49,271 nucleotides of DNA from a virus: positions 1 to 49,271 of IMG/VR virus record IMGVR_UViG_3300005337_000008. The stretch is one strand, 5' to 3'. Positions 13,879 through 35,124 of the stretch are shown one piece after another (position 1 is the stretch's first letter; every line of letters starts with the position of its first letter). The notes below the pieces were generated by a model that searched no databases, had not been told where the DNA came from, and saw only the letters and a list, made by a program, of their open reading frames with translations. The translations under genes were made by a program, and so were the position numbers.

Positions 13879-14339
13879 CGGATCTCCTGGTCTCGGTAAA
13901 AGGCGGTGGGCTTGTCGAGCGTGTTGTGTTTGCTCAGAAACACGGCGCAGCCGGGGCTTTTGAGGTCGACTTCCCAGTGCGCTTGAAAGCCTAACACTGC
14001 TTTCCATCCGTCGTTCGGGATGACCTCTGCCTTTTGTAACGCGTCCTCGATGATTTTGATGACGCCCATCGAGACGTTGCTCGGGTCGCGCTTTTTGTTC
14101 GGCTCGTAGATGAGGTACGTGAAGTACGCGCTCTCGACGGGCACAAGGTGCTGCGCGCGCGCGAGCAGCACCACGCGGTGCTGCCACTGCTTTTTGATGT
14201 CGTTGTACCCGACCCAGCCGGTTACGCGGTCGCGCTGTCCACGAGCCGCAAGTAGCTCGTTGAGGCCCGGGAAACGCCCTGGGATCCAGAGATGTTGGAT
14301 GCTCGAGCGTTGCACGTAGACGCTAACGTGTGTTGACAC
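13845..14339 (-). CDS. RusA-like Holliday junction resolvase
   Basis: A 164-residue protein with the RusA signature: IPGRFPGLNELLAARG at the N-terminus and KKRDPSNVSMGVIKIIEDAL followed by IPNDGWKAVLGF. The acidic residues in RDPSN, IEDAL and NDGW are at the positions used for metal binding in RusA. The annotated start is GTG within a class 1 operator-like site; a later GTG is possible. It would resolve branched DNA made by the recombination module before packaging. Standing first in the late block is common for resolvases. Confidence 0.7.
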   Translation of the reverse strand: MSTHVSVYVQRSSIQHLWIPGRFPGLNELLAARGQRDRVTGWVGYNDIKKQWQHRVVLLARAQHLVPVESAYFTYLIYEPNKKRDPSNVSMGVIKIIEDALQKAEVIPNDGWKAVLGFQAHWEVDLKSPGCAVFLSKHNTLDKPTAFYRDQEIRCPRTTEKLSP

Positions 14340-14458
14340 GCCGGGGTCGTCAAGCGCTCTTTCGGCAGCTCGAAGACGTTTCCTTCGGCATCAACGCAGC
14401 GACACAGATCGCCACTCAGCGCGAACACCACCGGGACCTCATGTGCGAGCGTTGCCAT
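14222..14458 (-). CDS. Possible small protein overlapping the resolvase
   Basis: A 78-residue frame beginning MATLAHEVPVVFALSGDLCR and continuing VDAEGNVFELPKERL, which looks protein-like. The last 40 residues overlap the resolvase start in another frame and look less so. No good ribosome binding site is visible. It may be real with a shorter functional part, or spurious. Confidence 0.3.
   Translation of the reverse strand: MATLAHEVPVVFALSGDLCRCVDAEGNVFELPKERLTTPACQHTLASTCNARASNISGSQGVSRASTSYLRLVDSATA
14330..14339. promoter_or_regulatory. Class 1 operator-like site at resolvase start
   Basis: GTGTTGACAC (GTGT-TG-ACAC, near-palindrome). On the minus strand it encodes the first codons of the resolvase (GTG TCA ACA C). 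The upstream sequence TTGACG lies 13-18 bases away but a matching -10 is not obvious. Confidence 0.45.
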
Positions 14459-14953
14459 GTCGCACACTATGTCCACATCTAAGCAAAGTGCAACATGTGA
14501 CAATATGCGTGACACGTGTCACGGTATTTAGTAAGGGTGTGTAGGTATACGTAAAGAAAAAGGCTCACCTTATGACCCTTGACCCTTGCGTGATGCTGGG
14601 GGCGTCTGGGCGTGTCGTGTGACGGTACTACTGGACTACAGTTGCTTACACTCTGCTACGCTAGGATCCGGGTCATGTAGACCCCTAGCGCTCTTGAGCC
14701 GTAGCTATGTTCGCACGTGCCGGCCGCGGGACAATTACCGCGGCGCTACCAGCCTTCCCCGGGTGTGAGCTCTACGGGTGGCGGACCCTTCGACGCCTGC
14801 AGGGGTAGTTGACACGTTCGGTCGTACGGACCCGCCTCGCTATTTCGGCTGCCGCCGTAGACCGCGCAGACGGTCCTGTGGGGCGCGACGAGGTACGCGC
14901 TTGGGTTCGGCTCCTCTTTCGAGCCGCTGCGCCCTGTGCTGCAATCTAGAGCC
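14459..14953. promoter_or_regulatory. Non-coding control region between late block and plus-strand gene
   Basis: About 500 bases with no convincing gene. It contains a class 2 palindrome at 14509-14522 (GTGACACGTGTCAC) followed by the most AT-rich stretch nearby (14523-14575), a small hairpin (GGGTC-ATGTA-GACCC, about 14669-14683), and a degenerate class 1 site at 14806-14815. It separates the minus-strand late block from a plus-strand gene, so a late promoter facing left is expected here, but I could not fix its hexamers. Confidence 0.45.
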
Positions 14954-15163
14954 ATGGCGTGGCGTGGAATGTCAGCTGAAGAGATCGAGGACTTCTGGTG
15001 CGCCGCACATCCGCCTATCGAGCGGGTGTGGTTCGACGATGCTGCCGGCTTCGCGAGCTTTTTTGTGCTCATGCGGGACGGTTCGATCTCAGCTCACCTC
15101 GATAGCGCCACGGGGGATGGTGCGCAAGTCCTAGCGGACGCGCTTGCGTACTTCCGCTCTTAG
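14954..15163 (+). CDS. Small unknown protein
   Basis: A 69-residue protein (MAWRGMSAEEIEDFWCAAHP, then FASFFVLMRDGSISAHLDSA). Alternative starts are GTG 18 bases upstream or the internal ATG at MSAEE, which has TGGA close to it. Strand and isolation from neighbours suggest its own transcription unit. No family recognised. Confidence 0.45.
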   Translation: MAWRGMSAEEIEDFWCAAHPPIERVWFDDAAGFASFFVLMRDGSISAHLDSATGDGAQVLADALAYFRS

Positions 15164-15217
15164 CCTCATCGTCAACACGTTGGTTGGACTCTTGTCACGA
15201 TGGAACAGGGTTCGGAA

Positions 15218-15270
15218 CCTGCTACCCCGCGCGTCGCATCGCCATTACCCCCTCGCTGCGGGGTAGCAGG
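15218..15270. repeat. Perfect 13-base inverted repeat
   Basis: CCTGCTACCCCGC at 15218-15230 and its exact complement at 15258-15270, with a 27-base loop. It lies between the 14954 gene and a convergent gene, just before a class 2 palindrome. No T-run follows, so it is not a typical terminator. It could be a Rho-independent roadblock, a protein site or a recombination site. Confidence 0.6.
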
Positions 15271-15281
15271 GGCCGATTAGC

Positions 15282-15295
15282 GTGACAGCTGTCAC
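15282..15295. promoter_or_regulatory. 14-base palindrome, class 2 site
   Basis: Perfect GTGACAGCTGTCAC. On the minus strand its TGA is the stop codon of the DUF3850 gene. The 26 bases around it (15279-15304) are identical to those around the copy at 26469-26482, well beyond the palindrome itself. Confidence 0.6.
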
Positions 15296-15627
15296 GGTTT
15301 GTTCTCCGCGCGCATAAGACGCTGATCGTCGCGCCAGTTCACGAGCAGCGGCGAGATCGACAAGATGCAGTAGCCGGCGGGCACGCCGAAGCCGGGCGAG
15401 CGCAGCGCGTAGGTGACCTGCACCATGCACCACGCGCCGGTGTACTGCTCGAAGACCGGATCCCACTCCATCAGGCGGAGCAGATCGCCCGGCAGGTAGC
15501 CGCCGCGGTCATCCTTGCGCCATTCGAAGCGCTTTTTGCCGTCAATGATGGCCGAAAACTCGTCCGGCCAGCACTTGAGGGCGTGGGTGTTTCCGCTCAC
15601 CTTGACCACCTGTCCGTTTCGCCGCAT
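15292..15627 (-). CDS. DUF3850 / ASCH-PUA-like protein
   Basis: A 111-residue protein. HALKCWPDEFSAIIDGKKRF followed by EWRKDDRGGYLPGDLLRLMEWDP is the signature of DUF3850, an ASCH/PUA-like beta-barrel thought to bind RNA or nucleotides. YTGAWCMVQVTYAL and GYCILSISPL are the remaining strands. Such proteins are common in phages and their role is unknown. The stop overlaps a class 2 palindrome. Confidence 0.75.
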   Translation of the reverse strand: MRRNGQVVKVSGNTHALKCWPDEFSAIIDGKKRFEWRKDDRGGYLPGDLLRLMEWDPVFEQYTGAWCMVQVTYALRSPGFGVPAGYCILSISPLLVNWRDDQRLMRAENKP

Positions 15628-15742: not shown

Positions 15743-15943
15743 ATGTTCACCCGCGGCGAGCTACTGAGCTTTCTCCGGTGCAGCCCAGATCGTCTCGATG
15801 CGATCTTGAGACGTCTTGGGCTCCCGAACCACCTGCGGGGCCTTCGGTACACGCCCGAGCAGGCGCGCGCCATCCTGGCGCAGTTCTACGCGCGTAAGGG
15901 TACTGCTGCCGGCCCGGGAGTCGAACCCGGGGACAAGGTTTAG
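15743..15943 (+). CDS. Small helix-turn-helix-like protein (excisionase-like?)
   Basis: A 66-residue protein (MFTRGELLSFLRCSPDRLDA, then ILRRLGLPNHLRGLRYTPEQ). The N-terminal part looks like a winged-helix or MerR/excisionase-type DNA-binding motif. The last 15 residues are read through the antisense of the tRNA-like gene (AGPGVEPGDKV), so the true C-terminus or the gene itself is uncertain. Confidence 0.4.
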   Translation: MFTRGELLSFLRCSPDRLDAILRRLGLPNHLRGLRYTPEQARAILAQFYARKGTAAGPGVEPGDKV

Positions 15944-15981
15944 GTCAGACCTTCTGACGTCCGGCGTCCACGCCGCCGGCC
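15906..15981 (-). tRNA. tRNA-like gene with enlarged anticodon loop
   Basis: On the minus strand a T-arm is perfect (stem CCGGG/CCCGG, loop TTCGACT). The acceptor pairs at 6 of 7 positions (GGCCGGC with GCCGGCA). The anticodon stem AAGGT/ACCTT is followed by a four-base variable region. The anticodon loop is nine bases (CTGACCTAA) where seven are standard, and T8 and a regular D-arm are not clear. No CCA is encoded. It may be a real atypical tRNA, an unusual suppressor, or a decayed tRNA. The anticodon cannot be assigned safely. Confidence 0.5.
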
Positions 15982-15987
15982 ATAACC

Positions 15988-18851: not shown

Positions 18852-19174
18852 CGGTCGCGCTCCCGGCGCAGGCGCTCGCCCATCTCTTTGCCGAGCCTGA
18901 ACGCTTCCTCGGCGGTGGGCGGGCCCTTTTCGGCGATGGAGCCGAAGATGGGGTGAGCGCATTTGAACAGGCGCTCTACGCGCGCGCGGGTCTCGTGGTC
19001 GAAGTAGCCGGCGTAGTAGGCGAGGTTGTCGCGCTCGATGCGCTCGGCTTCTTCTCGGGACCGCTCGGGAGCGGCGGAGAGGTGCTGCGCGATGAGCAGC
19101 GCGAGGAACGAGTCGGCTTCGTCCTCGGTCTGCAGGCGCATGGCGATGTCGTACTGCGTGGAGAGTTTGATCAT
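18848..19174 (-). CDS. Small helical unknown protein
   Basis: A 108-residue protein (MIKLSTQYDIAMRLQTEDEA). Charged helices (EEAERIERDNLAYYAGYFDH) and a short central hydrophobic part around KCAHPIFGSI. No family recognised. Confidence 0.5.
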   Translation of the reverse strand: MIKLSTQYDIAMRLQTEDEADSFLALLIAQHLSAAPERSREEAERIERDNLAYYAGYFDHETRARVERLFKCAHPIFGSIAEKGPPTAEEAFRLGKEMGERLRRERDR

Positions 19175-19428
19175 TCGACGCCCCCAACGGCGGACTCGCC
19201 CTTGCGGGCTTGGGTTTGCAGCTCGTCGATGCAGAGCTGCTCTCTGCGGTTACTCGGCGTGTTGAGCACGAGCGACGCCATCTGCCGACGGCCGCGCAGA
19301 ATGCCGGCCTTGCGCTCCTCGGCGATCAGCTCGGCGAGCACCACGTCATCGCCGCGGCGGTCGGGCGCGGCGTTCCACTTCACGAGCAGCGTGCGGGCGC
19401 GCAGCAAATCCTCATCGTGTGTTGACAT
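19171..19428 (-). CDS. Small unknown protein, first gene of an early unit
   Basis: An 85-residue protein (MSTHDEDLLRARTLLVKWNA). Its first codons ATG TCA ACA CAC form a class 1 operator. A promoter-like pair lies directly upstream with only eight bases between the -10 and the ATG, so a leaderless message is likely. No family recognised. Confidence 0.5.
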   Translation of the reverse strand: MSTHDEDLLRARTLLVKWNAAPDRRGDDVVLAELIAEERKAGILRGRRQMASLVLNTPSNRREQLCIDELQTQARKGESAVGGVE

Positions 19429-19436: not shown

Positions 19437-19465
19437 CATATAATGCCGCCCGGCTGTCAACACAA
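19437..19465 (-). promoter_or_regulatory. Promoter with flanking class 1 operators
   Basis: Minus strand: TTGTGT (-35, 19460-19465), 17-base spacer, TATATG (-10, 19437-19442), eight bases, then ATG. A class 1 site (9 of 10) at 19454-19463 overlaps the -35 and spacer, and a second in opposite orientation (19419-19428) overlaps the start codon. The two sites form a 45-base inverted pair around the promoter, as in repressor-controlled promoters. Confidence 0.5.
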
Positions 19466-19514: not shown

Positions 19515-20033
19515 TCACGGGAAGTTGCAGTGAAAGAGCTGGAGCGCGCGGTAGCTGCAGTTGTTCACTGCTTCCGAATGCGTGTCGTGCTGCACGCATC
19601 CTAGGGCCCAGTCGCGCGCTTCGCCCGAGCAGCGGGGGGAATGGTCGCGCTCCTCCCGTATCGCCTTGTGTTCGAGCACCACGCCAAGAATCGCGCACGC
19701 GAGGACGAGCCCGACGCCCCCAGCGACAAACCAGCCTGCCATGCCATGCCTCCCTGTATCGTTGCGCATCTCGACACCGCAGCGGGTGCAGTAGCGCCAG
19801 GTGACTGGGTCTTTGCACCATCCGCGCACGACGCGGTAGGGGTGGAAATCGAGCCAGCAGGTGAGCCGGCCGAGCCACGTTGTTTTGGGCTTCGGCACCT
19901 GATCGAAATACCAGCGGGCCTCGCAGGAGCTGTCGGGGTAGATGCACTTGGGGCTCTTGCACCACCGACAGGGCAACTGCTTGCCCATGTCCTTCGCGAT
20001 AAACGCGATGTCCTCGTCCGAAAGCTCGTTCAC
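19515..20033 (-). CDS. Cysteine-rich membrane protein
   Basis: A 172-residue protein starting with GTG in GTGA overlap. The N-terminal half has paired cysteines (LPCRWCKSPKC, then YCTRCGVEM) likely binding zinc. A membrane segment follows (GWFVAGGVGLVLACAILGVV), then a cysteine-containing C-terminal tail (PRCSGEARDWALGCVQHD). Topology suggests a cytoplasmic zinc domain and an exported tail. Function unknown. Confidence 0.5.
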   Translation of the reverse strand: MNELSDEDIAFIAKDMGKQLPCRWCKSPKCIYPDSSCEARWYFDQVPKPKTTWLGRLTCWLDFHPYRVVRGWCKDPVTWRYCTRCGVEMRNDTGRHGMAGWFVAGGVGLVLACAILGVVLEHKAIREERDHSPRCSGEARDWALGCVQHDTHSEAVNNCSYRALQLFHCNFP

Positions 20034-20347
20034 GGCTTCATCGTCCGGATATGTTCGGCGAACCACCAGCCGCAGAGCTCGTCATCGTTGTGCTCCTCTA
20101 CGCGAAGCGCGCAGCGCTCGATGGTCTCGGCTTTCACGTCGGCGATGAGGCGGCCGAGCGACGTTGTGTAGCCGCGATTGGCCGCGTGTTCGATTGCCGC
20201 TTCGGCGGCTTCAAGCTGGGTGTCGAACCAGTCTTCGCAGCCGTCGTCATCATCGGGTGCGCCGTCGAGCGTCCACTCCCACATGCCGGTTGGGGCGCCG
20301 GTGCCTGGCCGGATCTGGTAGGTGCGCAGGGTGACGCGGGTGGCCAT
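20030..20347 (-). CDS. Small acidic unknown protein
   Basis: A 105-residue protein (MATRVTLRTYQIRPGTGAPT, then GAPDDDDGCEDWFDTQLEAA). The ATG is six bases downstream of a -10-like TAGGCC, predicting a leaderless message. Alpha/beta composition. No family recognised. Confidence 0.5.
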   Translation of the reverse strand: MATRVTLRTYQIRPGTGAPTGMWEWTLDGAPDDDDGCEDWFDTQLEAAEAAIEHAANRGYTTSLGRLIADVKAETIERCALRVEEHNDDELCGWWFAEHIRTMKP

Positions 20348-20353: not shown

Positions 20354-20382
20354 GGCCTACTGCGTCAACACGAGCGTGTCAA
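20354..20382 (-). promoter_or_regulatory. Promoter with two class 1 operators
   Basis: Minus strand: TTGACA (20377-20382), 17-base spacer, TAGGCC (20354-20359), six bases, then ATG. A full class 1 site (20376-20385) overlaps the -35 and a second copy (20362-20371, 9 of 10) fills the spacer. Repressor binding here would block polymerase. Confidence 0.5.
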
Positions 20383-20400
20383 CACAAAGGCTCGGGCAGC

Positions 20401-21023: not shown

Positions 21024-21097
21024 GCTCACGTGAGCGGTGCTCAACATGTAGCGCTGCTCACGTGAGCAGGTGTGCATGAGGCCAAGCTCACGTGAGG
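21024..21097. repeat. Three spaced palindromes GCTCACGTGAGC
   Basis: Copies at 21024-21035 and 21056-21067 are perfect 12-base palindromes; the third (21086-21097) has one change. Start-to-start spacing is 32 and 30 bases, near three helical turns, so bound dimers would lie on one face. Half-sites (GTGAGC at 21007, GGTGCTC at 21037) lie around them. Confidence 0.65.
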
Positions 21098-21155
21098 AGA
21101 AGCTCGCGTGCGCCGGCGCGAGTGGTCACTTACGCCTACACCCCGGCGATTATGT

Positions 21156-21169
21156 GTGACAGTTGTCAC
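21156..21169. promoter_or_regulatory. 14-base palindrome, class 2 site
   Basis: GTGACAGTTGTCAC, 13 bases matching the consensus GTGACA-NN-TGTCAC symmetry around a variable centre. It lies in the divergent non-coding region, 59 bases from the last GCTCACGTGAGC copy. Confidence 0.5.
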
Positions 21170-21326
21170 GTTATACGGGCCCCGGGGATCGCGCCTTATG
21201 ACCTGAAAGAGGTTCGGGGTTGAGGTCGCACAACCAATAACCAGTTACCGCGACTGGCGAGCGTGGCCGGTGTAAGCGGGCACCTTACGTAAGCTCGGCG
21301 TGTGTAGGCAGACGTCCACCAAAAGC

Positions 21327-21340
21327 GTGACACCTGTCAC
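21327..21340. promoter_or_regulatory. 14-base palindrome, class 2 site
   Basis: GTGACACCTGTCAC followed by GGATT, as at other copies. It lies about 48 bases upstream of the rightward -35 at 21388, a place suited to an activator or a distal repressor site. Confidence 0.5.
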
Positions 21341-21387
21341 GGATTACACACGAGCGCTCGCTTGTGCCGATTCAAGCCTTGCCTACG

Positions 21388-22380: not shown

Positions 22381-23361
22381 ATGTCACACGAAGTTGAAAC
22401 GATGTTCACCGTTGGCGCTGAGCCGTGGCACGGCTTGGGCGTGCGCCTTGAAAACCCGCCCACGGTTGCAGACGCAATCCATCGCGCGGGCCTTAATTGG
22501 CCGGTTGAGAAGGTGCCACTATGCAGGCTCGATCGGGCGCACCTGATTGGCTCCACTGCAGAGACTGATGCAATCGTTCCGAGCTACGCTACGGTGCGCA
22601 CCGATACGGGCGCGTACCTCGGAACCGTAGGACCGCAATGGACGCCACTGCAGAATGTGAGGGCATTCGAGTGGTTTCAGCCGTTTATCGATTCGGGTGA
22701 TTGCTCGCTCGAAGCCGCGGGTTCACTGCGCGAGGGCAAACACGTTTGGGTGCTCGCCAAGATCAATCGCGACCCCGTCGAGGTCACATCGGGCGATGGG
22801 GTGCTCGCCTATCTCCTGTTGTCGAATGCGCATGACGGCTCGCGTGTTGCCCGCTGCGGATTCACCCCGGTTCGCGTTGTGTGTCAGAACACGCTTTCTG
22901 CCGCTCACGCGGGGGACGCTTCAAAGCTCCTACGTATCCGCCACACGGCAAACATCGAGTCAGCACTCATTGAAGTGCGCGACACGATCGATCTGGTCCA
23001 TCGGGGATTCCAGGCTTCGATTGACCAAATGCGCTCGCTCGCTCGCAAGGGCTGCAACGTCGATGACCTCCGCAAGTACGTACATCGGGTGTTCCGCACC
23101 AAAGACGCGGATATGCTCGAAACCGACAGCGAAACCGCACTGAAGTCCGATCGTCTGTTCACTGCGATTGAGCCGATGTTTCTCAAAGGCCGGGGCAACA
23201 AGGGTGAAACGTATTGGGACGCCTTCAACGCGGTGACTGAATACCTCACGTGGGAGCGTGGGCGCACTGCCGACAATCGCATGCATAGCCTTTGGCTCGG
23301 CGAGGCTGGCGCACTGGCGGATCGGGCGATGTCGGAAGCTCTCAAGCTTGTAGCAGCGTAA
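22381..23361 (+). CDS. DUF932 phage/plasmid protein
   Basis: A 326-residue protein starting MSHEVETMFTVGAEPWHGLG behind TAGGAGTA. That N-terminus and SYATVRTDTGAYLGTVGPQW, LSNAHDGSRVARCGFTPVRV and VCQNTLSAAH are characteristic of the DUF932 (TIGR03299) family, common on phages and plasmids with unknown function. Length is typical. The C-terminus (WLGEAGALADRAMSEALKLV) also fits. It heads a run of accessory genes that may form a functional set. Confidence 0.8.
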   Translation: MSHEVETMFTVGAEPWHGLGVRLENPPTVADAIHRAGLNWPVEKVPLCRLDRAHLIGSTAETDAIVPSYATVRTDTGAYLGTVGPQWTPLQNVRAFEWFQPFIDSGDCSLEAAGSLREGKHVWVLAKINRDPVEVTSGDGVLAYLLLSNAHDGSRVARCGFTPVRVVCQNTLSAAHAGDASKLLRIRHTANIESALIEVRDTIDLVHRGFQASIDQMRSLARKGCNVDDLRKYVHRVFRTKDADMLETDSETALKSDRLFTAIEPMFLKGRGNKGETYWDAFNAVTEYLTWERGRTADNRMHSLWLGEAGALADRAMSEALKLVAA

Positions 23362-23646
23362 ATGGGGTTCTACACACTCGCGGTGGGCTCTCTAGAGCTG
23401 GACTTCTATGCAGGGTCAGACGATCGGGCACGCGCAATAGGCGCCCGATGGCTGCGCCTATTCTGGAGTCGCTACAAAGCCTCGCGCCGCGCCGGTGGCA
23501 TGGCACATGCGTGGTGTCGGGATGCTGAGTTTGTGTCTCTGCACCGGGCACATGTTGATTCGGCTGGAATCATAGCCAACACACGCCCGCGCATTGATCG
23601 TTGGCACCTGGAGTGCAACGGCGAAATTGCGCGGCGCTACAAGTAA
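23362..23646 (+). CDS. Unknown protein following DUF932
   Basis: A 94-residue protein starting right after the preceding stop (MGFYTLAVGSLELDFYAGSD). Basic and tryptophan-rich (WLRLFWSRYKASRRAGGMAH, DRWHLECNGEIARRYK), compatible with nucleic-acid binding. No family recognised. Confidence 0.5.
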   Translation: MGFYTLAVGSLELDFYAGSDDRARAIGARWLRLFWSRYKASRRAGGMAHAWCRDAEFVSLHRAHVDSAGIIANTRPRIDRWHLECNGEIARRYK

Positions 23647-23699
23647 AGCAACGCTCCCATCCCATTGGCTCGGGTCAGTGGGATGGATGGGTTGCTTAC
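23643..23699 (+). ncRNA. Structured leader element, copy B
   Basis: Outer stem AAGCAAC/GTTGCTT, extended by GT/AC around a bulged A, internal loop GCTCC / GATGG, inner 10-base stem CATCCCATTG/CAGTGGGATG with the U-G at the same place as in copy A, loop GCTCGGGT. It begins in the preceding stop codon. CCCTACG and TAGGAGTA follow, as after copy A, then the next gene. Confidence 0.6.
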
Positions 23700-23722
23700 G
23701 ACCCTACGCTAGGAGTACCAAC

Positions 23723-24259: not shown

Positions 24260-24268
24260 GAGATAGCC

Positions 24269-24892: not shown

Positions 24893-25107
24893 CGGTTCGC
24901 AAAACCCGTATATCTATCGGCGACATTAGACGCGCCCCATGGGGGAATTGCGTGGTACTGCAGCGCGTGCGCGGCCGGCGTGGTGAGGAGCGCACACTTT
25001 ATGTGATCGGCTGGATACGGGCGGGCGCACCCGTTGTACCGGGCGAGACGCGCGCCCGCTCACACGTTCTCAAATGGCCATTTGTGGGGAGATTTGAGGA
25101 GGTATGA
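24889..25107 (+). CDS. Small basic protein
   Basis: A 72-residue protein starting MTVRKTRISIGDIRRAPWGN, arginine-rich, mainly beta. Its first six residues equal those of the next gene product. ATGA overlap. No family recognised. Confidence 0.5.
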   Translation: MTVRKTRISIGDIRRAPWGNCVVLQRVRGRRGEERTLYVIGWIRAGAPVVPGETRARSHVLKWPFVGRFEEV

Positions 25108-25466
25108 CAGTCCGCAAGACGATCACTTTGCCCGATACGGGCGCCCTACTCTTAGAGCGCGCTGCCGGACCATCCCAGGCGCGCGCAGCGGGGGACTACC
25201 TCGCAATCGTGCTGCAGCAACGCTATGCAGCTTGGACCCAGGGGCTGTACCTCGTGCGGGAGAACATGGGTGCTGAGAAGCTGCGCGCAGCGCTGGAAGC
25301 GCTCACGCCGCACAACCCCACTGCAGAAGATCGCGTGTATGGTTTCACCGGCATGCGTGGCGCTCCCAAGCTCGTGAGCCCACAGCTTCGCAATGCATTC
25401 TGCGACGTCTTGCTCGAATACAACGCACGCAACCAAGCGCTGTTAGAGGCGCTCAAAGGAGACTGA
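25104..25466 (+). CDS. Unknown protein, possible DNA-binding fold
   Basis: A 120-residue protein starting MTVRKTITLPDTGALLLERA, which resembles the strand-helix start of ribbon-helix-helix proteins. The rest is helical (FCDVLLEYNARNQALLEALK). ATGA overlap. No family recognised. Confidence 0.5.
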   Translation: MTVRKTITLPDTGALLLERAAGPSQARAAGDYLAIVLQQRYAAWTQGLYLVRENMGAEKLRAALEALTPHNPTAEDRVYGFTGMRGAPKLVSPQLRNAFCDVLLEYNARNQALLEALKGD

Positions 25467-25468
25467 CC

Positions 25469-25711
25469 ATGCTGACGATAGAGCCTTTCGACAAAGCTGA
25501 CGACGTAGACACTATTCCGTATCGACTGCACCCGATCGACGTCGGATTCGATCTCCGAATCCACAACACATCGGTTGCGGTATCGGCCGATGACGACCCG
25601 TTGCGCGTCTCATATCCCAAGGCTGGCGAGCGCTATGTGGTCTCAGGTCCACAAAGCGAGGTGATTGAGTATCTGCGCGGGCTCGGCTTCACATTCGAGG
25701 TGACGCCGTGA
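25469..25711 (+). CDS. Small unknown protein
   Basis: An 80-residue, beta-rich, acidic protein (MLTIEPFDKADDVDTIPYRL, then YLRGLGFTFEVTP). GGAGACTGACC precedes the ATG. No family recognised. Confidence 0.5.
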   Translation: MLTIEPFDKADDVDTIPYRLHPIDVGFDLRIHNTSVAVSADDDPLRVSYPKAGERYVVSGPQSEVIEYLRGLGFTFEVTP

Positions 25712-25971
25712 AAATGCACATACCGCCCGAATGCCAAGGGCAGATCGTAGAAGTCAGCTATGGTGACGGTTGCGACGGTACAGTGTATCGGCGCACCCTC
25801 GATCACAGCGACAGCACCGAGATGTGGGAGCGTGCCGAATACGCGGCTCTTTTCCCGGACTGCGCTTGCGTTGGGGACGGCTGCCCGCACTGGAGCCCCT
25901 GGAACACTAGGCCGGGAGGCTTCGAGGATGCGTGGGAATCATGCGCTGAGCCGAAGGAGGATTTGGCATGA
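25708..25971 (+). CDS. Small cysteine-containing protein
   Basis: An 87-residue protein starting with GTG in GTGA overlap, or with the ATG two codons on. Beta strands at the N-terminus; CACVGDGCPHWSPW resembles a metal-binding loop. Coupled to the single-stranded DNA-binding protein gene. No family recognised. Confidence 0.5.
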   Translation: MKMHIPPECQGQIVEVSYGDGCDGTVYRRTLDHSDSTEMWERAEYAALFPDCACVGDGCPHWSPWNTRPGGFEDAWESCAEPKEDLA

Positions 25972-26465: not shown

Positions 26466-26468
26466 AGC

Positions 26469-26482
26469 GTGACAGCTGTCAC
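26469..26482. promoter_or_regulatory. 14-base palindrome, class 2 site
   Basis: Perfect GTGACAGCTGTCAC, ten bases past the stop of the minus-strand gene to its right and just beyond the ssb terminator. The flanks match the copy at 15282 over 26 bases. Confidence 0.6.
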
Positions 26483-26491
26483 GGTTTGTTT

Positions 26492-26752
26492 TCAGACCTC
26501 GCCCGCTATGAGGCGTTCGCGCCACTCGTACAGCTCCGAGGAAATATCGTCCATGAGCGCCAGATCTTCGGGCTCTGCTTCGGACCCCTCGGACATCCCG
26601 CCAGTCAGAGTTCCGAAAAGCGCCACCGCACCCGCATAGAACGCCCGCCGCATCTCGCGCCACTGAATGTCCGGGATGTCTGCCCCGGCAAACACAATGC
26701 GCTCAAAGTCCGCCCACTGCGCAGCAATCAAACGTCGCTTCGGCGAGTCCAT
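26492..26752 (-). CDS. Small unknown protein
   Basis: An 86-residue protein (MDSPKRRLIAAQWADFERIV) with GGGAGGGGAC before the ATG. Helical; acidic C-terminus (EAEPEDLALMDDISSELYEW). No family recognised. Its leader is long (133 bases) and holds three class 1 sites. Confidence 0.55.
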   Translation of the reverse strand: MDSPKRRLIAAQWADFERIVFAGADIPDIQWREMRRAFYAGAVALFGTLTGGMSEGSEAEPEDLALMDDISSELYEWRERLIAGEV

Positions 26753-26833
26753 GTCCCCTCCCAGAAATGCGAGTGATTGCCCGCACTTGTACGATTTTAT
26801 GTGACTTTCTTGACACCACCGCTTGCCTGCCGT

Positions 26834-26879
26834 GTGTTGACATGCCAAGGTCAGCGTGTGTTGACAGATGTGTTGACAC
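26834..26879. promoter_or_regulatory. Cluster of three class 1 operators
   Basis: GTGTTGACAT (26834-26843), GTGTTGACAG (26858-26867) and GTGTTGACAC (26870-26879), all in one orientation, upstream of the 26752 gene and downstream of the 26886 gene. Start spacing is 24 and 12 bases, suited to cooperative binding. No matching -10 with 17-base spacing is clear. Confidence 0.6.
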
Positions 26880-26885: not shown

Positions 26886-27083
26886 TCAAGAGGACCGGCG
26901 CTTGGCCGCCTCTTTGGCCGCGAGTTCGGCTTCGACGGCGGCCTTGAGCACCTTCGTTGCCCACTCGGTGAACGTCTCTTTGGGCGCGACGCGCCGCTGT
27001 CCCTTTTTGATGTACGTCAGATCGTCCGGTTTGATCCGGAAGTGAATATGCTCGCTACGCGGTCTCGGCGGCCTGTCTGCCAT
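26886..27083 (-). CDS. Small basic DNA-binding-like protein
   Basis: A 65-residue protein (MADRPPRPRSEHIHFRIKPD, then DLTYIKKGQRRVAPKETFTE and a helix of A/E/K). Strand then helices, highly basic, fits a ribbon-helix-helix regulator. The ATG is seven bases after a -10-like TAGGTT, so the message is probably leaderless. Autoregulation through the class 1 site in its promoter is possible. Confidence 0.5.
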   Translation of the reverse strand: MADRPPRPRSEHIHFRIKPDDLTYIKKGQRRVAPKETFTEWATKVLKAAVEAELAAKEAAKRRSS

Positions 27084-27090: not shown

Positions 27091-27119
27091 AACCTAGCGG
27101 TCGTGTGTTGACACGGCAA
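27091..27119 (-). promoter_or_regulatory. Promoter with class 1 operator in spacer
   Basis: Minus strand: TTGCCG (27114-27119), 17-base spacer, TAGGTT (27091-27096), seven bases, ATG. The perfect class 1 site GTGTTGACAC (27105-27114) lies inside the spacer, the same arrangement as at 35096-35124. Confidence 0.5.
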
Positions 27120-27223: not shown

Positions 27224-28174
27224 ATGGATGGCGCACACATGGATGCATCAGTAGTTCCGAGCGGGCTCGTTTTCGAGGGCACGATCGATGCACAACAAAA
27301 GCTTATCGAGGCCATCGCAGCCGCTCGTCTGGAGTTTGGCGACATCGATAAGGATCGCACGGGTCAGTACGGTAACCAGCGTTTCAAATATGCCACCTTA
27401 GGGCTACTGGTCGCGGCGACGGCCAAGCCGCTGGCGGATCGCGGTGTTGTCGTGATGCAGAATTTCGTTTCCTGCGCCGACCCCTCACGCCAACGTCTCA
27501 CCACCACGATCATGGGGCACGGCGCGCGCATCACATCGTCCATCGAGTTCTCGCCCAGGGAAGCGAAGGAAGACGGGACGAACCGCTCATTTGAGTGGAT
27601 CAAAGAGTACGGTAAGCTTCGCACTTACCTTAGACGCTATGAGTACCAAACGTTATTCTTGTTAGACGCTGAGCCCGATGCGGACGAGGCCGGCATGCCC
27701 ACTGAGCGCCGCGAGGAGCCCCGGCGTGAAGCACCCCGCCCAGAGCCCCGGCCAGAACCCCGCCAGCGCCAGGCGCGCAAGGAGGAGCGCAAGGAGGAGC
27801 CACGGCAGGAGACCTTGCCCGCGTCTCCTCCTCCCCCGCCTCCAGAGTCCAAGCCCCTGAGCTTCGACAAGCCCATGCAGCGCGAGGAGCCTCCCCGTGA
27901 TGAGATGGCCGAGAAGCTGTCGACCGTGGCCGAGCCGAAGGTTGAGCTCGACGAGGACGGGCCGACCGACGAGGACATGCTCGGGAAGCTCCTCGAGCTG
28001 CAGCGCGCGCTCGGCATGGGCCGGATCCAGCTCGCGCAGACCTGCGAGAAGGATTGGGGCATCCCTCCCGGCAGCATCCGGCAGTCGCGCCGCGCCGCGC
28101 AGAAAGTCCTCGAGCACATGCAGGCGATGGTCACCGAGCGGCTGCAGGGTGACATCGCATCGGGGGCCGCATGA
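27224..28174 (+). CDS. erf: Erf-family single-strand annealing recombinase
   Basis: A 316-residue protein behind CAGGAGAAAACCT. The conserved core (residues about 20-150) has the Erf pattern: QQKLIEAIAAARLEFGDIDK, RFKYATLGLLVAATAKPLAD, ITSSIEFSPREAKEDGTNRS and GKLRTYLRRYEYQTLFLLDA. A long R/E/P-rich, probably disordered linker (about 165-215) leads to a C-terminal helical domain. Erf anneals homologous ssDNA and circularises P22-type genomes. It is the first gene of the recombination operon and couples to the nuclease. Confidence 0.85.
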   Translation: MDGAHMDASVVPSGLVFEGTIDAQQKLIEAIAAARLEFGDIDKDRTGQYGNQRFKYATLGLLVAATAKPLADRGVVVMQNFVSCADPSRQRLTTTIMGHGARITSSIEFSPREAKEDGTNRSFEWIKEYGKLRTYLRRYEYQTLFLLDAEPDADEAGMPTERREEPRREAPRPEPRPEPRQRQARKEERKEEPRQETLPASPPPPPPESKPLSFDKPMQREEPPRDEMAEKLSTVAEPKVELDEDGPTDEDMLGKLLELQRALGMGRIQLAQTCEKDWGIPPGSIRQSRRAAQKVLEHMQAMVTERLQGDIASGAA

Positions 28175-29214
28175 GTCCCGTGCTGCCCAACCGTCTCGGC
28201 CACCGGATGAGCTCGCTTCCGGTCACCCAGTTCTGCGGCCAGGCCGGCGCGCTCTCACAGATCGGCGCGGGCCGAGCCGCGGCGCAGTCCACCGCGTTTC
28301 ACGCGCTGTGTTCAGGAGCGGAGAACGCTCAAGAGCTGTGCATGCGGCTCACCGAGGAGGAGCTCGGCGAGATGATGGCGTGGCACCGCCCCGCCGACAT
28401 CGATCTTGGGCAAGGCATTGTGCTTCGCTACCGCGACGCGATGAAAGAGTTTCACGTCGCGATCGACAAGTACGGGCAGTATGTCGAGCCCGGCTCGCCC
28501 GAGGCCGTGTCCGAAGGTCATCCCGACTTCGCGTGGATCGTGACCACCCCGGGGCGAAAGCTGGCCTACGTCGCGGATATCAAGCGCTCGGAATGGACCG
28601 CAGCAGACGGGGTGAAGTCCCTGCAGCTCCACGGCTACGGCTTGGCCGTGGCCACGAAATACGAATGCGACGGCTACTGCGTTGGGATCTGGTCGGCCAT
28701 CGAGGGGCTATGGCAGTGGTCTGAACTGCTCGATCTCGAGAGTTCTGAAACCCTTGGCACGGCGCGCAGGGTGGTTGCCGCCGCGCAGAACTTCAGTGCG
28801 GATTACGCCATGGGTGCGCACTGCCGCAGCTGCTACGGGCGGCTTCGTTGTCCGGCGTGGCTCATTCCTCCCCGCGCCGCGCTCGACGAACTTTCGCCCA
28901 TCGCCAATAGCGAGACACCCATCACTGAAGAAAACGCGCTCAAGCTCCTGCTGACGTTTCAGCGCGTGGCCGACACGGCGAAAGCTGTGGAGAACCACCT
29001 CAAAGAGTGGGCCGTGCGCAACCGGGGCATCACCGATCCGAAATCGGGCAAGGTTTGGAAACCCGTTGTGTGCAGTGGCCGCGAGTCGGTCAAGCTCGAG
29101 GAGCTGCGCGCATTCATCGCCGAGTCGCGGGCTGAGTTCGTGCCACTACGCTCGGTGGCATCGCTTATTCGCAAAGGTAAGCCCTATGAGCAGTTCAGGT
29201 GGGTGAACAAATGA
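28171..29214 (+). CDS. Cas4/RecB-like PD-(D/E)XK nuclease with four-cysteine (iron-sulfur-type) site
   Basis: A 347-residue nuclease. The active site is complete: H44 (STAFH), D119 (GHPDFAW), D136-x-K138 (VADIKRSEW) and Q152 (LQLHGY). A cysteine near the N-terminus (C22) and C218-x2-C221-x5-C227 match the iron-sulfur staple of Cas4 and AddB. It would process DNA ends to ssDNA for the Erf protein encoded just before it. ATGA overlaps on both sides. Cluster binding and polarity are inferred. Confidence 0.8.
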   Translation: MSPVLPNRLGHRMSSLPVTQFCGQAGALSQIGAGRAAAQSTAFHALCSGAENAQELCMRLTEEELGEMMAWHRPADIDLGQGIVLRYRDAMKEFHVAIDKYGQYVEPGSPEAVSEGHPDFAWIVTTPGRKLAYVADIKRSEWTAADGVKSLQLHGYGLAVATKYECDGYCVGIWSAIEGLWQWSELLDLESSETLGTARRVVAAAQNFSADYAMGAHCRSCYGRLRCPAWLIPPRAALDELSPIANSETPITEENALKLLLTFQRVADTAKAVENHLKEWAVRNRGITDPKSGKVWKPVVCSGRESVKLEELRAFIAESRAEFVPLRSVASLIRKGKPYEQFRWVNK

Positions 29215-30251
29215 AGGTACTCGGCTTTCGCACGCTGAAGATCGAGCAACTGTGTCTCACCGGCGACTTCCGCGCTCGCCTGGACAATCCCAGGATCTTC
29301 GAGCGCGCGCGCAGCATTGAGCGCGTGGGGATTCTGTCCGAGCCCATGGTGCGCCAGGTGGACCACCGGGTGATCTACGGGCACGACCGCATCGCCGCCG
29401 CCATCCGGTGCGGCTTTACCGAGGTGCTGTGCAAGCTTGTCGAATGCTCGGATGAAGAGCTCTACGAGATCGAGCTCACCGAGAACGCCCACCGTAGGCA
29501 TGATGTCGAAGCCCAGCGCGAGGGCCTGCTCAAAGTGCTCGGTCTGTACGAAGAGCAGATCGAGGTGAACCCCCACGCGGCGCCGCTCACTGATCCGACC
29601 CGTGGCCGCTCGAAGACTGCCCGGGGGCTTGCCCGGGTTCGGGTCGCGAACGAGTCCGGCATCAAACCCGAGTCGGTACGCATGGCGGAGTTCCGAGCCA
29701 AGCGCGCAGCCGAAAAGGCGAAGACACTCAAGAGTCGGCAAGACAAGCGCGTTGTGGAGCGCGAGGCCAAGAACCCCACCATCACGATCAACTTGATCGG
29801 GATGGAAGTCGAGGACGAGTTCACCGAACAGGTCGAGCGCATCGGCAAGCTCCTAGGCGAAGCCGACAGCGCCATGCGCCGTGCCCAAGGCGCGCTCGGC
29901 AACATCTCGAGCGAAAAGCTGCCCTATCCCGCGGCTCGACTGCAGCGCTTGCTCGATGACGTGCACGCGGCGGCGTCTGCTGTGCGCGTCGCAAAGCCGG
30001 TTGCATTGTGCCCGTATTGCAAGGGCCTGCCGAAGTTGCAGGACGAGTGCGCGGCGTGCCTGCAGTCCGGCTGGGTGAGCCTCGCTCAGTCTGGAGCCGT
30101 GCCCAAGGATCTGTGGACCGAAGGTGCCGGCGCGCTCGTGGCGTACCGCGGAACGTACGTGCGGGTCTCAGAGTTCCTGGGCGAGCTCGCGAATCCCGAG
30201 CCGATCGTGGAGAGGGTTTTGGAACAGGAGCCCGAGGAGTTCTTCGCGTGA
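29211..30251 (+). CDS. ParB-like N-terminal domain protein with C-terminal zinc ribbon
   Basis: A 346-residue protein (MKVLGFRTLKIEQLCLTGDF). ParB/Srx-type signatures are ARSIERVGILSEPMVRQVDH, VIYGHDRIAAAIRCGFTEVL and YEIELTENAHRRHDVEAQRE. A charged middle follows, then a zinc ribbon CPYCKGLPKLQDECAACLQS. Phage ParB-like proteins can be nucleases, CTPases or regulators. No partner ParA is seen, so partition is unlikely. Confidence 0.7.
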   Translation: MKVLGFRTLKIEQLCLTGDFRARLDNPRIFERARSIERVGILSEPMVRQVDHRVIYGHDRIAAAIRCGFTEVLCKLVECSDEELYEIELTENAHRRHDVEAQREGLLKVLGLYEEQIEVNPHAAPLTDPTRGRSKTARGLARVRVANESGIKPESVRMAEFRAKRAAEKAKTLKSRQDKRVVEREAKNPTITINLIGMEVEDEFTEQVERIGKLLGEADSAMRRAQGALGNISSEKLPYPAARLQRLLDDVHAAASAVRVAKPVALCPYCKGLPKLQDECAACLQSGWVSLAQSGAVPKDLWTEGAGALVAYRGTYVRVSEFLGELANPEPIVERVLEQEPEEFFA

Positions 30252-30466
30252 CCGACTATATCCACCGCACCGAGGCGCTCACCCTCGAGATGCGCCGCTG
30301 TCATGAGTGCGGGCGCTACTGGGCGTTTGACTCGTTCCATTCTCCCAGCCGTGCGGAATGCCCCGCCTGCGCGGGCCGGCAGATCACCCGGCTATACAAG
30401 CGCATCGGCGAGATGGAGCGCACGATCATTGCGCTCAAGGGCGCGCTCACCAAGGCGAAGAAATGA
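30248..30466 (+). CDS. Small zinc-ribbon protein
   Basis: A 72-residue protein starting with GTG in GTGA overlap. Cysteine pairs at RRCHECGRYW and ECPACAGRQ form a complete zinc ribbon, followed by a basic helix (RTIIALKGALTKAKK). It couples to the helicase. Likely nucleic-acid binding. Confidence 0.6.
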   Translation: MTDYIHRTEALTLEMRRCHECGRYWAFDSFHSPSRAECPACAGRQITRLYKRIGEMERTIIALKGALTKAKK

Positions 30467-32154
30467 GCGGCTTGCTCGCATTCCAGCAGGACCCGTGGGC
30501 GGCGCTCGATGATGGGCTCCGGTTCTACCAGCGGGACATTGCCCAGGCTGCTCTAACAGAGCTGCAGTCCGTGCGCGCGACGCTGGTCGTGGCGGCGACC
30601 GGCACCGGCAAGACGCAGATGTTCGCGGCCATCATTGCCGACTGGCCCGGCAGGGTGCTGGTGCTCTGCCACCGAGATGAGCTTGTCGACCAGGCGCGCT
30701 CCCGCATCGAAGCGGTGACCGGCGAATACGTGCAGATCGAAAAGGGCATGTTTCGCGCCGACCTCGGCACGCGAATCGTGGTGGCAAGCGTCGACACGCT
30801 CAGGTCGAAGGGCCGCCTCGAGCGGTTCCCCACCGACCACTTCTCGCTCATCATCCCCGACGAGGCGCACCACTACACCGGCAACACCTACGTCAAGCCG
30901 CTCGAGTATTTCGCGCAGGCGAAGGTGATCGGGTTCACCGCGACTCCAGACCGCGGCGACAAGATCGCGCTCGGCAAGACGTTTGACAGCGTGGCGTACA
31001 ACCTGGACATCGCCGCCGCGATCGAGCTCGGCTACCTCGTGCCGATCATCGGCCAGCAAGTGACGCTCGAGGAAATCGACCTGTCGGGCGTCAGTAAGAG
31101 CAAGGGCGACCTCGTAGGTTCGCAGCTCGACGAGGTGATGCTCAAGGCTGTGGAGGGCGTTACGCGCGAGACGCTGCGCCTGTACCCCGACCGCCAGACC
31201 ATCGCGTTTTTCCCCGGCGTGAAGTCCGCCGAATACGCCGCCGCAAAATTCAACGCGCTCTTGCCCGGCTCGGCGCGGTTCATCTCCGGCAAGACTCCGC
31301 CCGACGAGCGCAAGCAGCTCGTGCGCGCGTTCCGCAACTGCGAGTTTCGGTACCTCTGCAACTGCATGATCGCCACCGAGGGCTTTGACGCGCCGAAGAC
31401 GTCGCTCATCGTGATGGCGCGGCCGACGCTGTCACGCGCGCTCTATACGCAGATGGCCGGCCGCGGAACCCGAGTGCTCCCCGGAGTCGTCGACCGCTAC
31501 CACGAGCGCGACGCGTGCGCGGTGCGTCGTGAAGCCATCCGCACGTCTGCGAAGCCGTGCATGGTCATGCTTGATTTCGTCGGCAACAGCGGCAAGCACG
31601 ACCTGGTCACGCTCGAGGATATTCTCGGCGGCAAATATACCGATGCGGAGGTGAAGCTCGCGAAGAAGAAACGGGCGAGCTGTGGCGACGATCCTGCCGC
31701 AGCGCTCGAGGCCGCACGTGCCGAGCTCAGGGCGCTCGCTGCCAGGGTGCAGGCCAAGGTCAAAAGCCGGGTGACCAGCTTCGACCCGTTCAAGACGCTG
31801 CAGATCGATCGGCCCGGCATCGTCGACAACAGCCGCGGGCAGCGTCCCGTGAGCCAGAGCCAGGTGCAGTATCTGATGGCGGCGGGCGTGCCCGAGGAGG
31901 AGCTGCGCGGGCTGTCGGCGCCCGAGGCCGCAAAGCTCATGAGCGTGGTGAAGAATCGCCGACAGCGGGGGCTGTGCACCTTCCGCCAGCTCCGGGTGCT
32001 GACCAAGTACGGGCTCAGCGACCCGAACCTAAGCTTTGTGCGCGCAGGCGCGGCGTTGAACTATTTGCAGCAGAAAGGCTGGGGCCGAGAGCCCATCGAC
32101 CCGCACGTCTTGCACCGCATTGCCACGTACCGCGAGCCCGGGCAGGAGGGATGA
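30463..32154 (+). CDS. DEAD/DEAH-box superfamily 2 helicase
   Basis: A 563-residue helicase starting MSGLLAFQQDPWAALDDGLR. Motif I is ATGTGKTQ (about 45-52), motif II DEAH (133-136), motif III TATPDRGD, motif VI AGRGTR. It resembles type III restriction/UvsW-like SF2 helicases. The C-terminal 150 residues are basic and helical. It probably remodels recombination or replication intermediates with the neighbouring nuclease and SSB. Confidence 0.85.
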   Translation: MSGLLAFQQDPWAALDDGLRFYQRDIAQAALTELQSVRATLVVAATGTGKTQMFAAIIADWPGRVLVLCHRDELVDQARSRIEAVTGEYVQIEKGMFRADLGTRIVVASVDTLRSKGRLERFPTDHFSLIIPDEAHHYTGNTYVKPLEYFAQAKVIGFTATPDRGDKIALGKTFDSVAYNLDIAAAIELGYLVPIIGQQVTLEEIDLSGVSKSKGDLVGSQLDEVMLKAVEGVTRETLRLYPDRQTIAFFPGVKSAEYAAAKFNALLPGSARFISGKTPPDERKQLVRAFRNCEFRYLCNCMIATEGFDAPKTSLIVMARPTLSRALYTQMAGRGTRVLPGVVDRYHERDACAVRREAIRTSAKPCMVMLDFVGNSGKHDLVTLEDILGGKYTDAEVKLAKKKRASCGDDPAAALEAARAELRALAARVQAKVKSRVTSFDPFKTLQIDRPGIVDNSRGQRPVSQSQVQYLMAAGVPEEELRGLSAPEAAKLMSVVKNRRQRGLCTFRQLRVLTKYGLSDPNLSFVRAGAALNYLQQKGWGREPIDPHVLHRIATYREPGQEG

Positions 32155-33321: not shown

Positions 33322-33533
33322 ATGAGGACACCGGAGCAGCGCGCGAGTCACTCGCCATGCTCAGGCTTGCAGCGAACGCCGCCGGCTACGACACCGCGCA
33401 CCCGGCGATTCAGGCCGCGCTGATTCGCGCCTACGGTGACATCGCCGTCGCCGCGAACGTCTCGGCACTCGCAGCCGTGATGGCGCGCTGCGGCGACTAC
33501 CTGCGGGACATCGCGCGGCGGGGCCGCTCGTGA
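33294..33533 (+). CDS. Small unknown protein
   Basis: A 79-residue alanine-rich helical protein (LAMLRLAANAAGYDTAHPAI). It overlaps the HNH gene by 28 bases. No family recognised. Confidence 0.45.
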   Translation: MRDDRGAVLDEDTGAARESLAMLRLAANAAGYDTAHPAIQAALIRAYGDIAVAANVSALAAVMARCGDYLRDIARRGRS

Positions 33534-33727
33534 CTCTCGACGAGCACGACGTGGCAGAGCTGGAGCGACTTGCGAAGCGAATGCTCGCGTTGTGCGCACG
33601 AGCGCGCGCCGAGATTGACCGACCAACATCCAGCGACGTAAGAGCTAGCACGCTTTCGCCGGAGGAAAGGGCGGAGGTCATCGCGCAGGTGCGCCAGCGC
33701 CTGCTTCGCCAAGGGGTCGACGAATGA
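33530..33727 (+). CDS. Small helical unknown protein
   Basis: A 65-residue protein, GTG in GTGA overlap (MTLDEHDVAELERLAKRMLA). Arginine-rich helices. No family recognised. Directly precedes and overlaps the integrase; an excisionase-like role is conceivable but not shown. Confidence 0.45.
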   Translation: MTLDEHDVAELERLAKRMLALCARARAEIDRPTSSDVRASTLSPEERAEVIAQVRQRLLRQGVDE

Positions 33728-34959
33728 AAGAGCTGACGGGAACCAAGACGTGGGTGCGAACGAAGTCCGGGCGCCGCAAGTGCAAGGCCAGGGTGGCCGG
33801 CAAGTACCTGGGGCTCTTCGACAGTGAGGCGAAGGCCGATCTCGCCATTGCGGTGACCATCGACCAGATGATGCAGCAGGCTTCGAAGCGCAAGGTGTGC
33901 GCGGATTACGTGGCCAAGTGGTTCGAGGAGCGCGAGCTCTCGGGCCGTGTACGCGATATCAGCGTGGACAAATGCGCATGGCGCACCTGCGTTGCGGATG
34001 CGGTGTGGCTGCAGATGGAGCCGAAGTTCGTCCGCACTATGCATCTGCAGAAGTGGCTCGATGCACTCGCGCAGCGCTCGGGCCGGCGCGTCCACCGCGT
34101 CAAGGTCAACGGGGTGTTCGTCATGCGCTCTGTCGAGACGGGGCAGCGCTTGACCGACGAGACGCTGCGCAAGGCGAGATCGCGGGTGAAGTTGTTCTTT
34201 CACTGGCTCAAGAGCAAGGGCATCTGCGAAGGCGTGAATCCGGTCGTCGGTCTCATCATGCCGGTCGGCAGGCGCATGAAGCGGGTCGGGACGCAGCGCA
34301 TCGTGCACCTCACCGGGCCGGAGATCCGAAAGCTGTTTGCGCAGCCGCTGCCGGTCGACGTTCGAGCGATCTATGCGATGGCCATCTACGCCGGGCTCCG
34401 CAAGAGCGAGATCTGGGCGATGCGCTGGGAGTACGTCGACTTCGGCGCGCGCAAGCTGTACGTGCGCAACTCGCGGACCGGCGAGGTCAAGACGAAGACG
34501 TCGCTGCGGGACGTGACGATGCTGCCGTACCTGCGCGACACGCTGGAGGCGCACTGGGTCGCGAAGGGCAAGCCCGAGAGTGGGATCGTGTTCCCCACCC
34601 CCGGCGGCGGCATGCGCGGCAAGGAGAACACCGCCCGTTGGAGTGACTACCGCTGGCGCTACCGCAAGACGCCGCGCAAGGGGCAGATCGCCGTAACGAA
34701 GGGCTGGCGGACGCGCGCCGGCATTCGGCCCGAGGTGACCTTCGCCTGCTTCCGCCACACGTGCGCGAGCCAGCTCCTGCAGGGCACTGTGCTCGGCAAC
34801 AAGGTGCCCCTGACCATCCAGGAAGTCAGCCCCTGGCTCGGCCACAGCAGCATCCAGGTGACCGAGCAGCACTACGCCGAGTTCTCGATCGACAGCGTCC
34901 ATCGCAAGGTGCTCGGTCTGCCTTTGAAAGTGGAAACGAATGTGGAAACGCTAAACTGA
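33724..34959 (+). CDS. int: Tyrosine integrase
   Basis: A 411-residue recombinase. The N-terminal part (KTWVRTKSGRRKCKARVAG) is an AP2/arm-binding-like strand region, then a core-binding domain. Catalytic R226 (AGLRKSEI), lysine near 256-258, R344-H345 (ACFRHTCAS), H374 (WLGHSS) and the nucleophile Y384 (EQHYAEF) are visible. The usual HxxR motif reads AxxR here. It carries out site-specific integration and defines the phage as temperate. Confidence 0.9.
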   Translation: MKELTGTKTWVRTKSGRRKCKARVAGKYLGLFDSEAKADLAIAVTIDQMMQQASKRKVCADYVAKWFEERELSGRVRDISVDKCAWRTCVADAVWLQMEPKFVRTMHLQKWLDALAQRSGRRVHRVKVNGVFVMRSVETGQRLTDETLRKARSRVKLFFHWLKSKGICEGVNPVVGLIMPVGRRMKRVGTQRIVHLTGPEIRKLFAQPLPVDVRAIYAMAIYAGLRKSEIWAMRWEYVDFGARKLYVRNSRTGEVKTKTSLRDVTMLPYLRDTLEAHWVAKGKPESGIVFPTPGGGMRGKENTARWSDYRWRYRKTPRKGQIAVTKGWRTRAGIRPEVTFACFRHTCASQLLQGTVLGNKVPLTIQEVSPWLGHSSIQVTEQHYAEFSIDSVHRKVLGLPLKVETNVETLN

Positions 34960-34980
34960 CCCTATGCGTTTCGCTCTGTA

Positions 34981-35064
34981 AACCTCGGTGATTTTGAACA
35001 AAGTGCTCGGGGCCAACCTATGTTTCCAAAGGCAATATGCAACCTGAGTGATATCGCGAGGTTG
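34981..35064. other. Candidate attP region with four CAACCT-type sites
   Basis: Directly after the integrase, AACCT(C/G) occurs at 34981, 35014 and 35040 on the plus strand and inverted at 35059-35064. AACCTCGGTGAT and AACCTGAGTGAT are partial direct repeats 60 bases apart. AT-richer than the genome. Spaced short repeats around an integrase gene end suggest arm-type sites; the core cannot be fixed without the host attB. Confidence 0.4.
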
Positions 35065-35095
35065 GGTCCGTTTTTCCACACTGATTCCACTTTGG

Positions 35096-35124
35096 TTGAC
35101 GTTGTGTTGACACGGGCCTAGTCT
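35096..35124 (+). promoter_or_regulatory. Promoter with class 1 operator in spacer
   Basis: TTGACG (35096-35101), 17-base spacer, TAGTCT (35119-35124). The perfect class 1 site GTGTTGACAC (35104-35113) lies inside the spacer. The transcription start would fall about 25 bases before the next gene. This is the layout of an autoregulated repressor promoter. Confidence 0.55.

What the first reader, a model, noticed from the sequence alone, without database searches (positions are those of the whole stretch)
14330..35113. Genome-wide operator family GTGTTGACAC placed inside early promoters
A GTGT-TG-ACAC near-palindrome occurs at 14330, 19419, 19454, 20362, 20376, 26834, 26858, 26870, 27105 and 35104 (9-10 of 10 bases; 20362 has one change), with weaker copies at 14806, 15169 and 17067. 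Nearly all lie between or at starts of early genes, none in the structural block. At four places it overlaps or fills the spacer of a hexamer pair with an exact 17-base spacer. This looks like a single-repressor regulon, and the -35-like TTGACA embedded in the site would let the repressor cover the polymerase contact.
Basis: seen in the sequence. Interest (0 to 1): 0.78.

Follow-up and report, generated by a model that had tools for sequence, protein, structure and literature searches.

The report
Dispersed phage early-gene operator family
A temperate phage carries about ten copies of one 10-letter DNA word (TGTGTTGACA) at the starts of its early genes; they are most likely the docking sites of a single switch protein that keeps the early genes off, a familiar kind of phage control seen here in an otherwise undescribed phage group.

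Summary
All ten listed sites exist, and the true conserved unit is the asymmetric 10-mer TGTGTTGACA: nine exact copies against 0.04 expected. Eight lie between genes and the ninth covers a start codon; all are in the early region (14.3-35.1 kb). Of the three "weak" sites two are background and 17067 is borderline. The reading as one operator regulon is well supported but not proven. At 35096-35124, 27119-27091 and 20382-20354 sites sit in, or supply part of, the best sigma70-like promoters. The embedded TTGACA is the -35 at only one of these; elsewhere the site fills the spacer. Relative G019 has six copies of TGTCACTTSTRTGTTGACR whose TTGACA is the -35; relatives G015 and G024 have other dispersed words fused to a -35. 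Operator words differ between relatives while the layout is kept. The regulator is not identified. The divergent 65-aa gene 26886-27083, with a site 20 bp upstream and three downstream, is the better candidate, but its ribbon-helix-helix assignment rests on pattern only; Pfam, PDB and Foldseek gave no support. Closest known analogue: mycobacteriophage L5 operators/stoperators, but site number and orientation rule do not match.

The parts
14329..14338 (+). site TGTGTTGACA, 13 bp upstream of the RusA-like resolvase gene (13845-14315 -); near a weak hexamer pair TTGACG-17-CACGTT (14353-14325 -)
   Evidence: RusA match
19418..19427 (+). site TGTGTTGACA overlapping the start codon of gene 19171-19428 (-)
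19455..19464 (-). site TGTGTTGACA, inverted with respect to 19418, over the possible -35 of a weak promoter TTGTGT-17-TATATG (19465 -)
20363..20372 (-). degenerate site CGTGTTGACG in the spacer of promoter 20382-20354 (-)
20377..20386 (-). site TGTGTTGACA whose TTGACA is the -35 of TTGACA-17-TAGGCC (20382-20354 -), upstream of gene 20030-20347
26833..26842 (+). site TGTGTTGACA, first of three tandem copies (24 and 12 bp apart) between genes 26886-27083 and 26492-26752
26857..26866 (+). site TGTGTTGACA, second tandem copy
26869..26878 (+). site TGTGTTGACA, third tandem copy, 7 bp from the stop codon of gene 26886-27083
27104..27113 (+). site TGTGTTGACA in the spacer of the promoter of gene 26886-27083 (-), in the divergent region to the ERF/helicase module
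27091..27119 (-). predicted promoter TTGCCG-17-TAGGTT of gene 26886-27083
35103..35112 (+). site TGTGTTGACA in the spacer of the promoter of gene 35156-35596
35096..35124 (+). predicted promoter TTGACG-17-TAGTCT, the best-scoring of the genome
26886..27083 (-). 65-aa basic protein, favoured regulator candidate; ribbon-helix-helix by sequence pattern only
   Evidence: position and pattern; not confirmed by Pfam, PDB or Foldseek
35156..35596 (+).
   Evidence: no Pfam or PDB match
33724..34959 (+). tyrosine integrase (the phage is probably temperate)
27224..32154 (+). recombination/replication module: ERF annealing protein, conserved protein, ParB-like protein, helicase; divergent from gene 26886-27083

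Best explanation
The sites are the operators of one phage-encoded DNA-binding regulator, most likely a repressor that keeps early transcription off in the lysogen or at the end of the early phase. It reads the asymmetric word TGTGTTGACA. Bound at 35103, 27104 and 20363/20377 it lies inside the polymerase footprint (spacer or -35) and blocks initiation. Paired or tandem sites (19418/19455, 20363/20377, 26833/26857/26869) would strengthen repression. It would control two leftward early operons, the RusA-like gene, genes 26492-26752 and 26886-27083, and gene 35156-35596. Shown: the site family, its position, its overlap with predicted promoters, and comparable families in relatives. Inferred: that one protein binds all sites, that it represses, and which gene encodes it (gene 26886-27083 about 40%, gene 35156-35596 about 20%, another phage gene or a host protein for the rest).
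For: Nine exact 10-mers against 0.04 expected, 8 intergenic. Matrix scan: 12 hits at >=12 bits against a shuffle mean of 3.0 and maximum of 8; the nine exact copies all score >=19.7. Three of ten sites lie in the spacer of predicted promoters against 1.2% of intergenic positions (p = 1.8e-4; one of these promoters takes its -35 from the neighbouring site). Relatives found through the terminase have dispersed promoter words of their own: G019 TGTCACTTSTRTGTTGACR, six copies, all in early regions; G015 TTGACGTAAGA, four exact copies; G024 TTGACWCTCAYGTGAG-like sites. In W, G015 and G024 one member sits in the divergent region between a small gene and the ERF module.
Against: No binding or expression data. 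No HTH_3 (CI-type) protein in the phage and no recognisable DNA-binding domain in either candidate. Three tandem sites (26833-26878) have no convincing promoter. Site orientation relative to the downstream gene is mixed. G019 shares the core word but no homologue of either candidate, so the shared core may reflect only the shared -35.
Confidence: 0.7

Rival explanations
1. The word is a promoter element itself: a -35 box with a conserved upstream extension for the host or a phage-modified polymerase, not a repressor site.
For: Contains the consensus -35 TTGACA; in G019 the related word is the -35, with a -10 at 17 bp at most copies.
Against: In the window a TA-starting -10 follows at 17 bp at only one of the nine exact copies; copies lie in tandem 12-14 bp apart and in both orientations; two lie in spacers of promoters that have their own -35.
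Confidence: 0.1
2. The sites bind an activator of early or middle genes rather than a repressor.
For: Sites overlap or adjoin -35 boxes; several promoters have poor hexamers and might need help.
Against: Spacer positions (35103, 27104) fit occlusion better than usual activator geometry (general knowledge); the promoters there are among the best-scoring of the genome.
Confidence: 0.12
3. The sites are targets of a host regulator that the phage has captured.
For: No convincing regulator was identified in the phage.
Against: Only 1 of 59 other related records searched (G019) has more than one copy of GTGTTGACA; other relatives use other words. The hosts of these records are unknown, so this argument is weak.
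Confidence: 0.1
4. The sites are iterons, partition sites or recombinase arm sites.
For: Three tandem copies lie near the recombination module, and a ParB-like gene is present.
Against: Sites are spread singly or in pairs over 21 kb at gene starts; iterons and arm sites cluster at one locus (general knowledge).
Confidence: 0.04
5. Same operator regulon, but the regulator is the 35156-35596 product.
For: Its promoter carries a site in the spacer; it adjoins the integrase; a stretch matches weak homologues in G020/G021, where I see an HTH-like pattern.
Against: No family or structure match; model confidence too low to judge; G020/G021 carry a homologue but no copy of GTGTTGACA.
Confidence: 0.2

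Closest known systems
Mycobacteriophage L5 / cluster A operator-stoperator immunity system (PMC9283540, PMC6550527)
   Same: A short asymmetric, strongly conserved word at many places in intergenic regions, including promoters; different words in related phages.
   Different: L5-type phages have more than 20 13-bp sites oriented with transcription and a 183-aa two-domain repressor. Here there are about 10 sites of 10 bp, mixed orientation, no repressor recognised, and a different sequence.
Lambda CI/Cro and P22-type operators
   Same: Operators overlap the polymerase contacts of early promoters.
   Different: Those sites are palindromes clustered at two control regions (general knowledge); here the word is asymmetric and dispersed, and no HTH_3 protein was found.
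Arc/Mnt/CopG ribbon-helix-helix repressors
   Same: Candidate gene 26886-27083 has the size and a strand-helix-helix-like pattern.
   Different: No significant match to RHH_1 or to any solved structure.

Membership tests
Cluster A (L5-type) stoperator system | more than 20 dispersed 13-bp asymmetric sites | tested here: not met
   9 exact plus 1-2 near copies of a 10-bp word
Cluster A (L5-type) stoperator system | sites in one orientation relative to transcription | tested here: not met
   4 co-oriented, 6 opposed to the downstream gene I assign to each (placements)
Cluster A (L5-type) stoperator system | monomeric two-domain HTH repressor | tested here: inconclusive
   no Pfam, PHROG or PDB match for the 146-aa candidate
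CI-type (HTH_3) repressor immunity | HTH_3 repressor gene in the phage | tested here: not met
   PF01381 silent in the window, rings in all 14 controls
Ribbon-helix-helix repressor (gene 26886-27083) | match to an RHH profile or fold | tested here: inconclusive
   pattern only; RHH_1, PDB profile search and Foldseek of a mean-pLDDT-72 single-sequence model gave nothing significant
Dispersed operator regulon of a temperate phage | multi-copy word above chance, confined to early intergenic regions and overlapping promoters | tested here: met
   (promoters are predictions)
Dispersed operator regulon of a temperate phage | one protein binds all sites and represses | not testable with these tools
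   needs binding and reporter assays

The most novel reading that the evidence does not exclude
A new, independently evolved dispersed-operator immunity system: a small regulator divergent from the recombination module reads an asymmetric word, and related phages have exchanged the word and the regulator while keeping the word attached to the -35/spacer of early promoters, giving immunity groups.
Probability: 0.2. Interest if true: 0.6.

Novelty: new member of a known kind. Interest (0 to 1): 0.42.

Why it matters
It gives a ready map of the early promoters of an undescribed temperate phage group (no megablast match for 14-36 kb among 50,697 phage records) and a comparative set in which operator words change between relatives while their position is kept. 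That would let one ask how immunity specificity evolves outside the well-studied lambda and L5 systems.

Tried and rejected
Perfect-palindrome reading (GTGT-TG-ACAC): rejected, the conserved block is asymmetric. Tandem-site scan of 2.9 million viral contigs: 14 hits, roughly the number I estimate for chance, with no phage carrying a comparable dispersed set. Close relatives through either candidate protein: none. Host identification through integrase or terminase in genome contigs: nothing. Structure of the 35156-35596 product: single-sequence model, mean pLDDT 46, not used. Foldseek of the 65-aa model: nothing. Literature search for the word: 81 papers hold it; the 15 listed looked unrelated by title. 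The G019 motif as a direct homologue of the window's: kept open, since the shared 10-mer includes the -35 and no regulator is shared.

Full report
Setting. The window is a virus record of 49,271 bases with a 120-base direct repeat at its ends, so it is probably a complete phage genome, GC 65%. It has a tyrosine integrase (33724-34959), an ERF-type annealing protein, a ParB-like protein and a helicase (within 27224-32154), an SSB, a RusA-like resolvase and a terminase. Genes were called with a codon-usage script of my own, so starts of small genes are provisional. Megablast of 14-36 kb finds nothing among 50,697 phage records.

Observation. Every listed coordinate is correct. Counting all words without prior choice, TGTGTTGACA is the strongest intergenic 10-mer: 9 copies, 0.04 expected, 8 between genes; the ninth overlaps a start codon. 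A matrix scan shows a clear gap: nine sites at 19.7-21.6 bits, one at 14.6 (20363), one at 13.5 (17066), one at 12.8 inside a gene (32948), then background. The weak copies at 14806 and 15169 are background. Outside the 10-mer little is conserved, and the two ends are not equivalent, so the word is asymmetric rather than a palindrome.

Placement. The sites lie 13 bp upstream of the RusA-like gene; on both sides of the start of gene 19171-19428; as a pair in the 53-bp gap before gene 20030-20347; as a triplet (24 and 12 bp apart) between genes 26886-27083 and 26492-26752; in the 140-bp divergent region between gene 26886-27083 and the ERF module; and upstream of gene 35156-35596. A hand-set sigma70 matrix puts promoters TTGACG-17-TAGTCT (35096-35124), TTGCCG-17-TAGGTT (27119-27091, minus) and TTGACA-17-TAGGCC (20382-20354, minus) among the best of the genome. 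The sites lie in the spacer of the first two; in the third one site supplies the -35 and another lies in the spacer. Random intergenic positions fall in such spacers 1.2% of the time; three of ten sites do (p = 1.8e-4). Matrix and thresholds were set by me after seeing the finding, and one promoter is not independent of its sites, so this is supportive rather than strict.

Relatives. Terminase searches gave more than 80 related records. Of 59 other records searched for GTGTTGACA (9, two of them only 28% identical in the terminase, and 50; many are fragments), only G019 has more than one copy. There the unit is TGTCACTTSTRTGTTGACR, six copies, all in early regions; its TTGACA is the -35, with TA exactly 17 bp on in four of six (p = 6e-6). 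G015 has TTGACGTAAGA (four exact copies) and G024 has TTGACWCTCAYGTGAG-like sites, again starting at a -35. G055, G042 and G064 have other repeated intergenic words, palindromic or near-palindromic. In W, G015 and G024 one member lies in the divergent region between a small gene and the ERF module; G064 shows none and G067 is unclear. The relatives thus suggest the same layout with changing specificity.

Regulator. The window has no HTH_3 protein. Small genes divergent from the recombination module occur in W, G015, G024, G067 and G064; their alignment shows a common strand/WxREA-like pattern that I read as ribbon-helix-helix, at 14-20% identity. No profile or fold search confirms it. In G042 a protein with a weak RHH_1 match (E 0.004, under the curated cut-off) has three sites of that phage's own word upstream. 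The 35156-35596 product adjoins the integrase and has weak homologues in G020/G021, which lack this word. I favour gene 26886-27083 but only at about 40%.

Mechanism. Inferred: the regulator occupies the spacer or the -35 and so excludes RNA polymerase; paired and tandem sites raise occupancy; the site in front of gene 26886-27083 would give autoregulation if that gene is the regulator. An activator or a plain promoter element is less likely for the reasons given under the rivals.

Comparison. The architecture resembles the L5 system, where a monomeric repressor reads more than twenty asymmetric 13-mers that follow transcription direction (PMC9283540; PMC6550527). Site number and orientation do not fit, so it is not filed there; it may work in a similar way at promoters.

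Verdict. A real, well-placed operator family; ordinary in kind, with an interesting comparative set and an unidentified regulator.

Noticed in passing
window 5276-5291, 14508-14523, 15281-15296, 21155-21170, 21326-21341, 26468-26483: Second dispersed family: palindrome CGTGACANNTGTCACG, six intergenic copies, absent from the nine other records searched. Probably another operator set, or at some places a terminator-like hairpin.
   Followed up: partly
window 21025-21096: Three copies of CTCACGTGAG in the long non-coding stretch 20.9-21.4 kb; its core resembles parS. G024 has the same palindrome behind a -35.
   Followed up: partly
window 15905-15981 (-): ARAGORN reports a tRNA with a four-base anticodon (caga), overlapping the 3' end of the small gene 15743-15943.
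   Followed up: no
L064 (G019 23320-25830) and L162 (G055 5162-7747): Terminase of relative G019 and helicase of relative G055 look interrupted by intein-like insertions (read from the translations).
   Followed up: no
G019 (L063), many intergenic places, e.g. 1880-1964, 6192-6312: More than 30 copies of a CCGCCCGTACAGCCGC-like repeat with regular 24/36-base spacing.
   Followed up: no
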